Source of the DNA: Desulfurivibrio alkaliphilus AHT 2 | GTDB lineage: Bacteria > Desulfobacterota > Desulfobulbia > Desulfobulbales > Desulfurivibrionaceae | NCBI RefSeq assembly: GCF_000092205.1 | Contig: NC_014216.1 | Location: forward strand, 2,795,742 to 2,859,741 | Direction: 5' to 3' | DNA: 64,000 nucleotides | Shown: positions 46,860-54,440 of the stretch, piece by piece | Layout: every line of letters begins with the position of its first letter | How positions within the stretch are numbered: position 1 is the first letter of the stretch | Made by a program: the position numbers and the translations under genes | The notes under the pieces: generated by a model | Seen by the model: the letters and a program-made list of their open reading frames with translations, nothing else | What the model was told of the DNA's origin: nothing | Databases searched by the model: none

Positions 46860-49247
46860 TTAGCGATAACCGGGAGCCGTGGGCGCGATGCCGTCGGGAA
46901 TCGGGTCGAAGGCGCCGGGGTCGGTTTCCACGCAGCAGGGCGCGCCGCTGATGGAGGCGTCCTCCTGGTTGATCCGGTTGGCAAAGGGGGCGTAGGAGTT
47001 GGCGCCCAGGTAGTTTGTTTCGTCGGTTTTGTTGTAGGTGATCTGGCCGGAGTAATCGGCTTTGTCGGTCCGCCAGGGGGAAGCCGGATTGAGGGAGCCG
47101 TCGTAAAGCGACTCGTTTCTGGCCATCTGGCCCCACTCGATCCAGGCGCCGTCGTAAATCTTGGCCGGCCAGTTCAGGGCCGCATCCAGGGCCAGGAAGG
47201 TGACGCCGGCCCGCCAGGAGGTGCGGCAGTAGCTGTAAGTGGTGGTGTTTTCATCGGCACCCAGGTCGTTCATGGCCGTTTCCAGTTCATTCAGCGGCAG
47301 CAAACGGCCGTTCTCATCCAGCAGGGTGACCCAGTCCTGGTGCCCGGCACCTTCAATGTGCCCTTCAAAGGCGACATAGGTTCTGGCAATGTCGTTGCTC
47401 ACCCAGGTGGTGCCGGGATCGCCGTTATATTCGGCGGCGGAACGGGCATCGATGATGGTGAAGGCCGCGGGAACCGCGCCCAGAGGAGTGCCGGAACCGT
47501 CGGTCACCGCCATCATCTCTTGCAGGCTGGCCCGGAAACGGTCCTTGGCGGTATCCTGGGGCAGCTCGCAGACGCTGTAATCGGAAGCTGCTTCCGCCGG
47601 GGCCTCGGTGGCCAAAGCGGTGCCGGTTTCTTCAGCAAAATGGCCGCTGTTGCCGTCCAGCACCCGCAGCCGTTCCCGCGGGAAGCCCCAGTAGCGGAAG
47701 TTGAAGTAGGCCCGCCCCAGGTGCATCATGTTGGGGTTGCCGGGGCCGGTGGTCAGGACGATGATGGTGTCTTCATCGATCCCGGTGCGCTGGATCAGGT
47801 CATTCATCTGGGTAATGGTCGGCACCTGGGAAACGGTGTCGGCGATGCCGTCGTTGCGGGTGGCCGACAGGTCTGCCGCGGTGTTCAGCAGAAAGGCGCC
47901 GGGGATATGGCCCTCTTCATAGGCGGCGGCAGCACCCACGTGCAGGACAACGAAGTTGTCGTAATCATAGGGGTCGCCGTTGGCCGTGGGGGCGCCGTTT
48001 GCCTGCCAGTCGGCCAGATCGGCGATGGAGAGCATTACCTCCACCGGGCGGTCGTTGGGGGCTGGCGGGTTGGTGTCGCAGGTGTTTTTGTCGGTTTCGT
48101 TGATCAGATTGGCCCGGGGGGCGAAGGAATCGGCGTTTGCAAGCGGTTCCACAATCCGGTTTTCGTAGTTGATCGCCTCGCTGCGGGCGGTGGTGTCGGT
48201 GCGCCAGGGGGAGTCGGGCATCAGGGCGCCACCGTAGTTCATATCGTTACGGGCCATCATGCCCCACTGTACCCAGGCGCCGTCGTAAATTTTAGCCGGC
48301 CAGCGCAGGACTGCGTCCAGGGCCAGGAAGTTCACCGCCGCCCGCCAACTTGTCTGGCAGTAAGTGTAGGCGGTGGTGCCGGGGCCTGCTCCGGCCTCTT
48401 CCATGATGGCCAGCAGTTCATTTTTGCCCAGCATGGCGGTGGGGTTGTTCGGGTCCAACAGGGTGGTCCACTCCTGCAACTGCGCCCCACGAACGCGGCC
48501 GCCGAAGGCCACCCCGCCGCGAAGATCTTCCCCTTCGTACTCTCCTTCCGAGCGGGCATCGAGAATTACGGTGCTGTCGGCCCCGTTTTCCGCCACGGAA
48601 ATCATCTCTTCCAGGGAGGCGCGCAGATTGATGTTGGCCTGCAGATCGGTCACGCTGTAGTTCGACGACCTGGGGGCCGGCGGCGAATTTTCCGCCAAAG
48701 CATAACCGCCGGCATCCTGGTAGGTGGCGGTCTTGGTGCCGTTGAGCACCCGCAGCCGCTCCCGCGGGAAGCCCCAGTAACGGAAGTTGAAGTAGGCCCG
48801 GCCGACGTTCATCATATTGCCGTTACCGACCAGGACGATCACCGTGCGCTCGTCAATCCCGGTGCGCTGGATCAGGTTGTCCATCTGGGTGGCGGTGGGT
48901 ACCTGGCTGGGGGTGTAGGAAACGCCGTTGGAGCGTTCCGCCCGCAGGTCATTGCCGGTGTCCAGATGGTAAGCGCCGGGAATATGGCCGGCCTCGTAAC
49001 CGGCGGCGCTGTCCACATCCAGGATCACCATGCGGTCGTAGCCTTTGGAATCGGTGCCGTAGCCGCCTTCCACCCAGTTGTTCAGGGTGTCGGCGTCGAT
49101 CATGACGTTGGGGTTGTTGTTGGACGCCGCCTTGGCGTCGTAGTCGGTGCCGCCGCAGCCGGTAAGCAGCAGCAAGGCGCCGGCCAGCAGGCCCAGCAGG
49201 GCATACAGGCGGGTGGGTTTGCCGTGGTTCAGATACTTGCTTGCCAT
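46860..49247 (-). CDS. multi-domain rhodanese lipoprotein, ExtH-like
   Basis: A 795-residue exported lipoprotein (LLGLLAGALLLLTGC, lipidated Cys 31). Two homologous halves of about 380 residues each contain two rhodanese folds. In each half the second fold carries the active loop YCQTSWRA (Cys 297) or YCRTSWRA (Cys 674), while the first fold has GNGNMMNVGRAYFNFRYWG or GPGNPNMMHLGRAYFNFRY with no cysteine. Rhodaneses move sulfane sulfur or selenium. The pairing with the porin and the sigma-54 promoter upstream fit the ExtH/ExtI locus type linked to selenite/tellurite handling in Geobacter. AAGGAGG precedes the ATG. Confidence 0.82.
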   Translation of the reverse strand: MASKYLNHGKPTRLYALLGLLAGALLLLTGCGGTDYDAKAASNNNPNVMIDADTLNNWVEGGYGTDSKGYDRMVILDVDSAAGYEAGHIPGAYHLDTGNDLRAERSNGVSYTPSQVPTATQMDNLIQRTGIDERTVIVLVGNGNMMNVGRAYFNFRYWGFPRERLRVLNGTKTATYQDAGGYALAENSPPAPRSSNYSVTDLQANINLRASLEEMISVAENGADSTVILDARSEGEYEGEDLRGGVAFGGRVRGAQLQEWTTLLDPNNPTAMLGKNELLAIMEEAGAGPGTTAYTYCQTSWRAAVNFLALDAVLRWPAKIYDGAWVQWGMMARNDMNYGGALMPDSPWRTDTTARSEAINYENRIVEPLANADSFAPRANLINETDKNTCDTNPPAPNDRPVEVMLSIADLADWQANGAPTANGDPYDYDNFVVLHVGAAAAYEEGHIPGAFLLNTAADLSATRNDGIADTVSQVPTITQMNDLIQRTGIDEDTIIVLTTGPGNPNMMHLGRAYFNFRYWGFPRERLRVLDGNSGHFAEETGTALATEAPAEAASDYSVCELPQDTAKDRFRASLQEMMAVTDGSGTPLGAVPAAFTIIDARSAAEYNGDPGTTWVSNDIARTYVAFEGHIEGAGHQDWVTLLDENGRLLPLNELETAMNDLGADENTTTYSYCRTSWRAGVTFLALDAALNWPAKIYDGAWIEWGQMARNESLYDGSLNPASPWRTDKADYSGQITYNKTDETNYLGANSYAPFANRINQEDASISGAPCCVETDPGAFDPIPDGIAPTAPGYR

Positions 49248-49365
49248 ACATCCTCCTTTATGTTGCACATAATTGCCTCCGGGTTGTTGCCTTACCTGGT
49301 CAGGAATCGGCCACTGAAGCCGGCTTCCGGACGCCGGTTCACCGGAGGCGGACACCCCCTGTTAG

Positions 49366-49522: not shown

Positions 49523-50893
49523 TCAGGATGGGGTGTTGATTTCGTATTTCTTGATTTTTCGCCACAAGGAGGCGGGGCTGATGCCCAGCAGTTCGGCGGT
49601 CTTGCCCCGATGGCCGTTGGCCCGTTGCAGGGCCTTGATAATCAGCTTTTTTTCCATGGAGGCCATGGTAAGCGACTTGGCGTCGTCCGCGGTGGTGTGG
49701 AGTTCAGCCTCTTCCCCGCCGGTTTCCAGGGGGGGCAGGTGCTCGGCCTGCAATTCCTGACCAGGGCAGAAAAGCAGCGCCCGTTCCACCGCGTTTTCCA
49801 GTTCGCGGACATTACCCGGCCAGGAATGGTCCAGTAAACGGGTTATTACCGGGGCGGGAATGGTTTGCACCTGCTTGTCGTACTTGGCGTTATATTTGGC
49901 CAGAAAATGGTGGGCCAGCAGGGGAATGTCCTCGCGCCGCTGCCTTAACGGCGGTAACTCCAGGCTGACCACGTTAAGGCGGTAAAAAAGATCACGTCGG
50001 AAACTCCCCGCTGCCACTCCTTCGCTCAGGGGGCGGCTGCTGGCGGCAATCACCCGGACATCGGCCCGGCAGGGCTGGCGCCCGCCGACCTTCAGAAAAG
50101 TACCCTCCTGGAGCACCCGCAGTAGTTTGACCTGAAAATTCAAGGTCATGGAGTCGATTTCATCAAGAAACAGGGTGCCCTGGTCCACGGTTTCAAACAG
50201 CCCGGGTTTGTCCTGGTCGGCCCCGGTGAAGGCGCCTTTGACGTGCCCGAACAGTTCCGATTCCAGCAGGGTTTCGGGCAGCGCTCCGCAGTTGATGGCT
50301 AAAAAGGGTTGCTTGTGGCGCCCGCTCCATTTGTGGATAAGTTTGGCCGCCAGTTCCTTGCCGGTTCCGGTTTCGCCGTTGATCAGGACCGTGGTGGAAA
50401 AGGGGGCCACCTGGGCGATTAGTTCCTTGAGCTTTTTCAGCGGCGGGCTTTCCCCCACCAGCTCATCCCCCCGGCAGCCGGCCACCTGCTGCTGCAGGCG
50501 GCGGTTTTCCTGCCGCAGCCGGGCGTGTTCAGTGGCCCGCTGCACGGTGAGCAACAGCTCGTCGGGTTCGAAGGGTTTCTGGATGTAGTCGTAGGCCCCC
50601 TTTTTGATGGCCTCCACGGCAGATTCAACCGTGCCATGGCCGGTGACCAGCACCACCATGCTATCGGGATTGGCGGCCAGGGCCTGTTCTAGAATTTCGA
50701 TCCCGCTGAAATGGGGCATCTGAAGATCGGTGAGAATCACGTTAAATGACCGGCTTTGCAGGAGCTGGGCCGCCTCCCGGCCGTCGGCGCAGAGTTCCGC
50801 GGTAAAGCCGGCGCTTGCCAGGGTGTCGCGCAGCAGTTGGCGCATGCGCAAGTCGTCGTCAATCACCAGGATGGGGTCGCTTGGCTGGCTCAT
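49523..50893 (-). CDS. sigma-54-dependent response regulator (NtrC family)
   Basis: A 456-residue protein: receiver domain with phospho-acceptor Asp 56 (ILTDLQMP) and VTGHG/KPF motifs, AAA+ domain with GETGTGKE (173-180), GAFTGA (220-225, the sigma-54 contact loop) and FLDEIDSM, then a Fis-type helix-turn-helix (RGKTAELLGISPASLWRKI). It activates sigma-54 promoters from distant sites. Its start overlaps the kinase stop (ATGA). The best target in view is the -24/-12 promoter 140 bases downstream of its end, before the ExtH-like gene. Confidence 0.92.
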   Translation of the reverse strand: MSQPSDPILVIDDDLRMRQLLRDTLASAGFTAELCADGREAAQLLQSRSFNVILTDLQMPHFSGIEILEQALAANPDSMVVLVTGHGTVESAVEAIKKGAYDYIQKPFEPDELLLTVQRATEHARLRQENRRLQQQVAGCRGDELVGESPPLKKLKELIAQVAPFSTTVLINGETGTGKELAAKLIHKWSGRHKQPFLAINCGALPETLLESELFGHVKGAFTGADQDKPGLFETVDQGTLFLDEIDSMTLNFQVKLLRVLQEGTFLKVGGRQPCRADVRVIAASSRPLSEGVAAGSFRRDLFYRLNVVSLELPPLRQRREDIPLLAHHFLAKYNAKYDKQVQTIPAPVITRLLDHSWPGNVRELENAVERALLFCPGQELQAEHLPPLETGGEEAELHTTADDAKSLTMASMEKKLIIKALQRANGHRGKTAELLGISPASLWRKIKKYEINTPS

Positions 50894-52635: not shown

Positions 52636-52890
52636 TTAATGCCGGTCCACCACAATCTGATAATAGGTGTCGACCTTCTCCACCTCCACCCGGTAACCCA
52701 TCTTGCGAGCCGACTCCGTTACCGTGACGGTGGCGTTACGGTGGTCTGTGCGGATCAGCAGCCGGGTTTGGCCGTCGCTGATTTCCTGCCGCCGCTGATT
52801 GATTTCTTTCAGTACCACCAGCAGGCAGGCCGGGCAGACCTGTCCCAGGATATCTAGTTCTATGGTTTCAGGGGTTGCAGCAGCAGACAT
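52636..52890 (-). CDS. TusA-like protein with CPAC motif
   Basis: An 84-residue TusA-fold protein. The usual DxxGxxCPxP reads LDILGQVCPACLLVVLKEIN: the second proline is replaced by a cysteine, giving a CxxC pair instead of a single sulfur-carrier cysteine. The rest (TRLLIRTDHRNATVTVTESARKMGYRVE) keeps the TusA strand-helix order. It opens the operon with the kinase and regulator, so it may pass sulfur or redox state to the sensor. Confidence 0.8.
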   Translation of the reverse strand: MSAAATPETIELDILGQVCPACLLVVLKEINQRRQEISDGQTRLLIRTDHRNATVTVTESARKMGYRVEVEKVDTYYQIVVDRH

Positions 52891-52971
52891 TTGTTGATCA
52901 CCTGAGAATAATACGGGGCAGCAGCCCGCCGATCGGCAGGCCGTTCAGCAAAGCGGCATCTCTTGTTGGTG

Positions 52972-53048: not shown

Positions 53049-53080
53049 AAAAAAAAAGCCCGCCGAAGCGGGCTTTTTTT
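53049..53080. terminator. bidirectional rho-independent terminator
   Basis: GCCCGC-CGAA-GCGGGC flanked by a run of nine A on the left and seven T on the right. In the plus direction T follows the stem and in the minus direction the A run gives T as well. It separates the selenoprotein gene end from the TusA-like/kinase operon upstream region. Confidence 0.75.
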
Positions 53081-53101: not shown

Positions 53102-54304
53102 TTAGCGGATATCAAACTTACCATCGGCGGAGATGCTGATGGTGGCGTTGAGAAACTGGACGCCTTTGGGGTTTGCGTAATTGCCCCGGGTGGCCAGGGC
53201 GTGGTAGACGCCTTCAGCCCGGATGCCGGTGACGCAGTGAATGACGATCTGCTTGTCGGTGGGCACCTTGCTTACCAGTTGCTCGTAGTTGGCGTGGAAC
53301 TTGTCGTCGGGCAGGTTGATGGCGCCGGGCAGATGGCCGGCTGCGTACTCGTCGGCGCTGCGCACGTCGAGAATCACAATTTCACCGCCTTTTTCCGCCA
53401 TCATTTTATTAAATTCGGCGGCGTTGATGCTGCGCGGCAGCGTGCCGGGGGCAACTTTGGGCAGTTCCTTGGGCTCCAGGGCCACCACGCCGCTGGGCTC
53501 ATTGCCCCACAACGGCAGGCCTGCTTCTTTCCAGGCCGGCTCGCCGGCTAAATATACGAAGAGATCGCGATAACCCAACTGGGCCGCCCGCCGGGCGGCT
53601 CGATCACTGTGGGGTCAGCCATAACCTCCGCAATAGAAGATCAGCCGGGTGTTAAGATCCCGGGGCAGCAGGCTCTTTTTCAGGTCCCATTGGTTGATGG
53701 GAATGGACAAGGAGCCGGGAATGAAAGACTGGCGATGGACATTGGTGGGGCGGGTGTCGACGAGGATAAAGTTGGCATCCTCGGCCGTCATCAGATGGTA
53801 AATGTAGGGAGTTTCCGAGATCAGGTAGTTGCCGGCGGCCTTCCAGCCGGGGTCACCTTCGTAGTAGACCTTAATGTTGGTCAATCCGTGCTCCATGGCG
53901 ATTTTGGCCGCTTGGGTGCTCAGCGGGCAATGCAGGCCGCCGCAGTAAAAAATAATCTGGCGGTCGCGGGGGAGCTTGTCGATGTTGGCGGCTACTTCGC
54001 CGGGGGTCATGTGGATGGCACCGGGGATGTGGCCTTCCTGGTAGCGGCCTTTGGGGCGGGTGTCCACCATCAGGAACTGGTCATTGGTGTCCAGAGTGGC
54101 TTTGACCAGCGCCCGGTCACCGTAGACTTTGTCAAAAAGGTCCATTACTTCGGCGGTGGTAATCCGCAGCTGCGGATCCTGCTCCACGTGTCGGGGGCCG
54201 GTGTCGGGCGTTGCCGTTTTGCCGGCCATGCCGCAGGCGGTAAGCAGAAAAGCCGCCAGGAGTACCACCCCCAGCTGGGCGACTTTGTTCCTCAATCTTT
54301 GCAT
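53102..54304 (-). CDS. selenocysteine-containing three-domain rhodanese lipoprotein (in-frame UGA)
   Basis: Two adjacent open stretches (54304-53618 and 53614-53102) form one 400-codon gene joined by a single in-frame TGA at 53617-53615. Signal peptide with lipobox LLTAC (Cys 24). Domain 1 ends [18 protein letters not shown] (Cys 121, Cys 126); domain 2 has FYCGGYG-U-PHSDRAA with the UGA at codon 230 exactly where domain 1 has its second cysteine; similarity runs straight through the UGA ([14 protein letters not shown] versus [14 protein letters not shown]). Domain 3 has the classical loop [10 protein letters not shown] (Cys 357). A SECIS-like hairpin follows the UGA. Likely a periplasmic sulfur/selenium transferase. 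GGAGGAGG precedes the ATG. Confidence 0.85.
53583..53599 (-). promoter_or_regulatory. bacterial SECIS-like hairpin
   Basis: On the minus strand GCCGCCC-GGC-GGGCGGC forms a perfect 7-base stem with a GGC loop, starting 15 bases after the UGA. Spacing and a loop opening with G fit what is known of bacterial SECIS elements, which lie inside the coding region just after the UGA. Confidence 0.6.
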
Positions 54305-54424: not shown

Positions 54425-54440
54425 AAAAGAACGTTCTTTT
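54425..54440. promoter_or_regulatory. 16-base perfect palindrome in the selenoprotein leader
   Basis: AAAAGAACGTTCTTTT is a perfect inverted repeat 121 bases before the ATG and downstream of the proposed promoter; a possible repressor site or short hairpin. Confidence 0.4.

What the first reader, a model, noticed from the sequence alone, without database searches (positions are those of the whole stretch)
53102..54304. Rhodanese lipoprotein with an in-frame UGA that looks like selenocysteine
Two frames of the minus strand are in register and separated only by TGA at 53617-53615. Protein similarity to the first rhodanese domain continues across the stop: CGGLHCPLS in domain 1 aligns with CGGYG-UGA-PHS in domain 2, so the UGA replaces a cysteine. 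Tandem domains with Cys in one and Sec in the other, inside a periplasmic lipoprotein next to an ExtH/ExtI-type locus, would be an unusual selenoenzyme for sulfur or selenium transfer. An automatic annotation would split it into two genes.
Basis: partly seen in the sequence, partly recalled or inferred. Interest (0 to 1): 0.9.

Follow-up and report, generated by a model that had tools for sequence, protein, structure and literature searches.

The report
Triple-rhodanese selenoprotein in sulfur bacterium
A sulfur-handling lipoprotein of the soda-lake bacterium Desulfurivibrio alkaliphilus carries an in-frame "stop" codon that comparison of about 145 relatives shows is read as selenocysteine, and its sister gene in the same genome, also a selenoprotein, sits in the polysulfide-reductase operon.

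Summary
Gene 53102-54304(-) encodes a lipoprotein with three (not two) rhodanese domains, interrupted only by UGA at 53617-53615, in the active-site loop of domain 2 (CGGYG-U-PHS). Among 146 aligned relatives, all 43 in-frame UGAs in the conserved region fall in exactly two columns, the C+5 positions of domains 1 and 2, which are otherwise mostly Cys. A close Desulfurivibrio relative has TGT there. Coding constraint continues past the UGA. All 40 Sec sites carry a hairpin at near-fixed spacing, nearly all with a G at the loop start, which Cys copies often lack. selA, selB, tRNA-Sec and a Sec-type selD are in the genome. A paralogue with Sec in domain 1 is the last gene of the psrABC operon, and some relatives elsewhere also follow psrAB(C). 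Best reading: a periplasmic sulfane-sulfur carrier for polysulfide metabolism, with a Cys-x4-Sec resolving pair (inferred). Rhodanese selenoproteins are known, and a 2026 review lists a UxxS form. No NCBIfam model reached its cut-off here. The new points are the three-domain architecture, the Psr link and Sec moving between tandem domains. Biochemistry is untested.

The parts
53102..54304 (-). triple-rhodanese lipoprotein gene, 400 codons including UGA=Sec230
   Evidence: orthologues L087/L101, L086/L098 and L096 with UGA at the same codon
54233..54304 (-). signal peptide and lipobox (LTAC, Cys24)
   Evidence: sequence [24 protein letters not shown]; the D. dismutans paper predicts the putative orthologue RS12800 as a lipoprotein (PMC12142623)
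53927..53944 (-). domain 1 active-site loop C121-GGLH-C126 (Cys form)
53615..53632 (-). domain 2 active-site loop C225-GGYG-U230
53615..53617 (-). UGA codon read as selenocysteine
53583..53599 (-). SECIS-like hairpin GCCGCCC-GGC-GGGCGGC, starting 15 nt after the UGA
53219..53236 (-). domain 3 loop C357-VTGI-R362 (classical rhodanese CxxGxR type)
   Evidence: C in 144 and R in 140 of 146
53049..53073 (-). intrinsic terminator GCCCGC-TTCG-GCGGGC plus T-run, just after the full-length stop
   Evidence: read from the sequence, (the consensus scan did not list it)
52636..52890 (-). TusA-family sulfur carrier (VCPAC motif)
   Evidence: PF01206, 46 bits
50890..52626 (-). PAS histidine kinase
49523..50893 (-). 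sigma-54 response regulator
46860..49355 (-). ExtH-type rhodanese lipoprotein
   Evidence: NF040901, 429.6 bits
45635..46825 (-). ExtI-type outer-membrane porin
   Evidence: NF040900, 565.4 bits

Best explanation
The gene encodes a periplasmic lipoprotein selenoprotein with three rhodanese domains. SHOWN: UGA230 is under selection as the Cys/Sec position of the domain-2 active-site loop, has a SECIS-like element, and the host has the whole Sec machinery. INFERRED FROM CONTEXT: it binds and passes on sulfane sulfur (polysulfide or S0 sulfur) in the periplasm, in the same physiological module as PsrABC and the ExtH/ExtI/TusA locus. INFERRED, LEAST CERTAIN: Cys225 (and Cys121, Cys357) take up sulfur as persulfide. 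Sec230 at position +5 is a resolving nucleophile that attacks the Cys225 persulfide, hands over or releases the sulfur as HS-, and leaves a Cys-Sec selenenylsulfide that a periplasmic reductant reopens. My estimates: selenoprotein 0.97, sulfur-transfer role 0.65, resolving-Sec step 0.35.
For: All 43 in-frame UGAs in the conserved region of 146 relatives lie in the two C/U columns. Cys/Sec exchange occurs between near relatives: TGA versus TGT in Desulfurivibrio SpSt-1224 (L097), and, at the domain-1 site, G178 (Sec) versus G381 (Cys) of one genus. SECIS-like hairpin: inner five pairs formed in 93.5% of cells at 40 Sec sites versus 62% at 200 Cys sites, stem of 5 or more in 100% versus 53%, G in the first two loop bases in 97.5% versus 46%. 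Same-gene control: -19.6 kcal/mol after the UGA, -9.7 after Cys126. Sec machinery. Coding constraint on both sides of the UGA. Function: paralogue G000:490857-492113 with Sec in domain 1 lies directly after psrA-psrB-psrC and by position is DaAHT2_0417, described beside the putative sulfur reductase operon (PMC5016858). In D. dismutans the Psr operon, which includes a triple-rhodanese gene, is strongly upregulated during sulfur disproportionation (PMC12142623). About 17 of 80 named relatives lie within a few kb of psrAB(C) homologues, including Bacillota.
Against: No protein-level proof of Sec. The single hairpin is not unusually stable against shuffles (z -0.94); the evidence is comparative. 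The window gene is not itself in a psr operon, and in G195 it stands alone between unrelated genes. Many relatives are Cys/Cys, so Sec is not essential to the family. No geometry or reductant for the proposed Cys-Sec pair was tested.
Confidence: 0.68

Rival explanations
1. It is a selenoprotein, but its job is selenium rather than sulfur: handling selenite-derived Se entering through the ExtI porin, together with ExtH.
For: ExtH and ExtI neighbours and their tie to selenite uptake and reduction in Geobacter (PMC5877670; PMC8981825). Some Bacillota relatives lie beside psr-like operons in genera close to selenite respirers (the selenite link of such operons is from my own knowledge).
Against: The extKL-S cytochromes of the Geobacter cluster are not beside ExtH/ExtI here. 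The paralogue and other relatives sit with psrABC, and the adjacent carrier is TusA-family. The organism lives on sulfur.
Confidence: 0.2
2. It is a selenoprotein used for thiol-redox or antioxidant work (disulfide or peroxide reduction), with the rhodanese fold as a scaffold.
For: The CxxxxU/C pair resembles redox pairs. TsoB, with a rhodanese domain and UxxxxU, is described as DsbD-fusion-like (PMC13188914).
Against: All three domains keep rhodanese loops, including an almost invariant Cys and Arg in the domain 3 loop. Gene context is sulfur respiration.
Confidence: 0.12
3. The UGA is a real stop: a pseudogene, sequencing error, or two separate proteins.
For: An ordinary gene caller would split it.
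Against: The same UGA codon occurs in independent genomes L087, L086 and L096. Only one disruption, purifying selection after it, and 43 of 43 UGAs at the Cys column.
Confidence: 0.02

Closest known systems
Rhodanese-like domain-containing selenoprotein form 1, motif UxxS (WP_010941598.1; PMC13188914)
   Same: Rhodanese domain with the UxxS motif; here U230-PHS. Relatives with Sec in domain 1 show U-V-L-S and similar.
   Different: The listed sequence could not be fetched, so identity of the families is a lead, not a test. No three-domain layout, Sec in domain 2 or Psr link was found described.
TsoB (NF045694), rhodanese/DsbD fusion-like selenoprotein, UxxxxU
   Same: Same spacing of two reactive residues in a rhodanese loop; best NCBIfam hit at 120 bits.
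   Different: Far below the 805-bit cut-off; one Sec rather than two; only rhodanese domains found by Pfam.
Triple-rhodanese protein of the Desulfurivibrio psr operon (DaAHT2_0417; AMeS2 RS06465)
   Same: 47% identical paralogue in this genome with three rhodanese domains; also a selenoprotein by sequence.
   Different: Sec in domain 1 instead of domain 2; encoded in psrABC. The papers read do not mention Sec.
Multi-domain sulfurtransferases 1yt8, YnjE, EanB
   Same: Tandem rhodanese folds among the best structural matches; 1yt8 is also the best sequence match.
   Different: About 16-21% identity, low TM-scores (domain arrangement differs), no Sec reported in these entries.

Membership tests
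Bacterial selenoproteins | in-frame UGA at a position that is Cys in homologues | tested here: met
   43 of 43 UGAs in the C/U columns; TGT in L097
Bacterial selenoproteins | SECIS-like hairpin just downstream with G at the start of the loop | tested here: met
   comparative against Cys copies
Bacterial selenoproteins | host has selA, selB, selC, selD | tested here: met
Bacterial selenoproteins | Sec present in the purified protein | not testable with these tools
   needs mass spectrometry or 75Se labelling
Rhodanese superfamily (PF00581) | profile match over the gathering score and active-site Cys | tested here: met
   153 bits, cut-off 22.2, three stretches; C121, C225, C357
Rhodanese superfamily (PF00581) | sulfurtransferase activity | not testable with these tools
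   assay needed
TsoB (NF045694) | score over the curated cut-off; two Sec | tested here: not met
   120 against 805 bits; one UGA
rhodanese_LYCAU (NF041203) | score over the cut-off; CxU motif | tested here: not met
   69.6 against 115 bits; Sec is at C+5
ExtH (NF040901) | score over the cut-off | tested here: not met
   34 against 200 bits for the query; the neighbour at 46860-49355 meets it
Rhodanese selenoprotein form 1 (WP_010941598.1) | UxxS motif | tested here: met
   U-P-H-S
Rhodanese selenoprotein form 1 (WP_010941598.1) | full-length homology to the reference sequence | not testable with these tools
   the record is not in the collections available

The most novel reading that the evidence does not exclude
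A selenoprotein family not covered by any NCBIfam model at its cut-off works in polysulfide respiration or disproportionation, and its selenocysteine has moved between equivalent sites of tandem domains: domain 1 in the Psr paralogue, domain 2 in this gene and in some Bacillota, both in one genome of the same phylum (L025). It would be a natural experiment on what Sec adds to a rhodanese.
Probability: 0.5. Interest if true: 0.7.

Novelty: new variant of a known kind. Interest (0 to 1): 0.52.

Why it matters
Two selenoproteins in one cultured, much-studied sulfur disproportionator appear to belong to its periplasmic sulfur-transfer system, and the genome and physiology papers read here do not mention selenocysteine. 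If confirmed, polysulfide metabolism in these bacteria depends partly on selenium, and the natural Cys/Cys, Cys/Sec, Sec/Cys and Sec/Sec versions would let one test directly what Sec contributes to sulfur transfer.

Tried and rejected
Pseudogene or sequencing error (rejected). Filing under TsoB, LYCAU or ExtH (rejected on cut-offs). Rfam on the region: nothing at gathering score; I read the weak hits as terminator-driven or chance. Folding energy of the single hairpin against shuffles: not significant (z -0.94), so the argument uses Cys copies as control. Association with selA across the phylum: 53 of 53 relatives have it but so do 355 of 395 sampled genomes, so it hardly discriminates. Whole-chain fold comparison only says 'tandem rhodanese'. 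A regex motif count missed some Sec sites (for example L110); the alignment count replaces it. The respiratory selenite reductase paper was not held.

Full report
WHAT IS THERE. Reading 53102-54304(-) with TGA as U gives a single 400-residue frame with a lipoprotein signal ([10 protein letters not shown]), one UGA (residue 230, 53617-53615), a TAA stop and a terminator hairpin shortly after that stop. Domain 1 has loop C121-GGLH-C126, domain 2 C225-GGYG-U230, domain 3 the classical C357-VTGI-R362. AlphaFold gives confident models of the individual domains (mean pLDDT 89, pTM 0.63, so the domain arrangement is less sure), and the best structural matches are multi-domain sulfurtransferases.

ORIGIN. 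The identification rests on this size match.

IS IT SELENOCYSTEINE? Machinery: SelA 633 bits, SelB 351 bits, tRNA-Sec 73 bits, SelD 384 bits with its own in-frame TGA. Comparative test: homologues were collected by six-frame searches that read through stops and from named genomes. In an alignment of 146 (which holds a few loci twice, fetched from both collections), position 126 is C in 107 and U in 31, and position 230 is C in 94 and U in 12; the rest have gaps or other residues, mostly proteins whose second domain is degenerate. All 43 in-frame UGAs in the conserved region lie in those two columns, none elsewhere. One Desulfurivibrio relative has TGT at the codon (L097), three have TGA, and substitutions after the UGA are most frequent at third positions just as before it. 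SECIS: 40 Sec sites were compared with 200 Cys sites of the same loops. Every Sec site can form a stem of five or more pairs at nearly fixed spacing, and 97.5% have G in the first two loop bases; Cys sites reach 53% and 46%. Compensating changes are visible (C-G, G-C, T-A at the same pair). In this gene the UGA is followed by a -19.6 kcal/mol fold, the Cys126 codon by -9.7. I regard the Sec reading as about 97% certain short of mass spectrometry.

DISTRIBUTION AND SEC MOVEMENT. Sec is usually in domain 1. It is in domain 2 in the Desulfurivibrio orthologues of this gene (L018, L087/L101, L086/L098, L096), in Natroniella and Fuchsiella (Bacillota; L109, L110, sequence) and in a Clostridia MAG (L115), and in both domains in L025. 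On the tree these Sec forms are separated by Cys/Cys lineages (its labels came from a motif that missed L110 and L115). The direction of change is not resolved.

CONTEXT AND FUNCTION. Downstream on the same strand lie a TusA-family carrier, a PAS histidine kinase, a sigma-54 regulator, an ExtH-type lipoprotein and an ExtI porin. In D. dismutans AMeS2 (L091/L101) the same order holds, with a YeeE/YedE-type transporter between the rhodanese gene and tusA; AHT2 keeps only its last codons. The AMeS2 paper places its lipoprotein sulfurtransferases RS12800 and RS05165 with porin RS05170 and YeeE/YedE, probably this locus, and assigns them to polysulfide handling (PMC12142623). The paralogue (47% identical, Sec in domain 1) is the last gene of psrABC, by position DaAHT2_0417 (PMC5016858). 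In AMeS2 the Psr operon, which includes the triple-rhodanese gene RS06465, is strongly upregulated in disproportionation. About 17 of 80 named loci have psrA/psrB homologues within a few kb; no chance expectation was computed. Hence a sulfane-sulfur transfer role is the best reading (0.65) and selenite handling the main rival (0.2).

MECHANISM, INFERRED. C225 is the rhodanese catalytic position by alignment and the Sec sits at +5. A Cys-x4-Sec pair could take sulfur as Cys persulfide and resolve it through a selenenylsulfide, speeding transfer or release. This is chemistry by analogy and was not tested.

NOVELTY. Rhodanese-like selenoproteins are listed in reviews (PMC13188914 forms 1-5; PMC9312934). 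No NCBIfam model reaches its cut-off on this protein, its paralogue, L109 or L025. The papers read on Desulfurivibrio do not mention selenocysteine in these genes. I therefore call it a new variant of a known kind: three domains, Psr-linked, Sec in the second domain.

Noticed in passing
window 52898-52945 (-): Remnant NGLPIGGLLPRIILR* just before the TusA-like gene matches the C-terminus of the YeeE/YedE-type transporter present at this place in D. dismutans (L091:12692-13930), suggesting that the transporter gene was lost from AHT2.
   Followed up: partly
window 46860-49355 (-): The ExtH-type protein is about twice the length of the family model and matches it in two stretches, so it looks like a tandem duplication of ExtH.
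   Followed up: no
window 54425-54440: Perfect 16-bp palindrome AAAAGAACGTTCTTTT about 120 bp upstream of the start codon, possibly an operator.
   Followed up: no
L088:10858-12114 (-), genome 490857-492113: Triple-rhodanese paralogue, last gene of the psrABC operon, has Sec in domain 1 (CGGLA-U-PFT) and a NapC/c7-type multiheme cytochrome gene after it.
   Followed up: yes
L025 (G314), loops of domains 1 and 2: Natural double-Sec version, with UGA in both domains; the 45 bases starting at each UGA are identical, suggesting recent gene conversion or domain duplication.
   Followed up: partly
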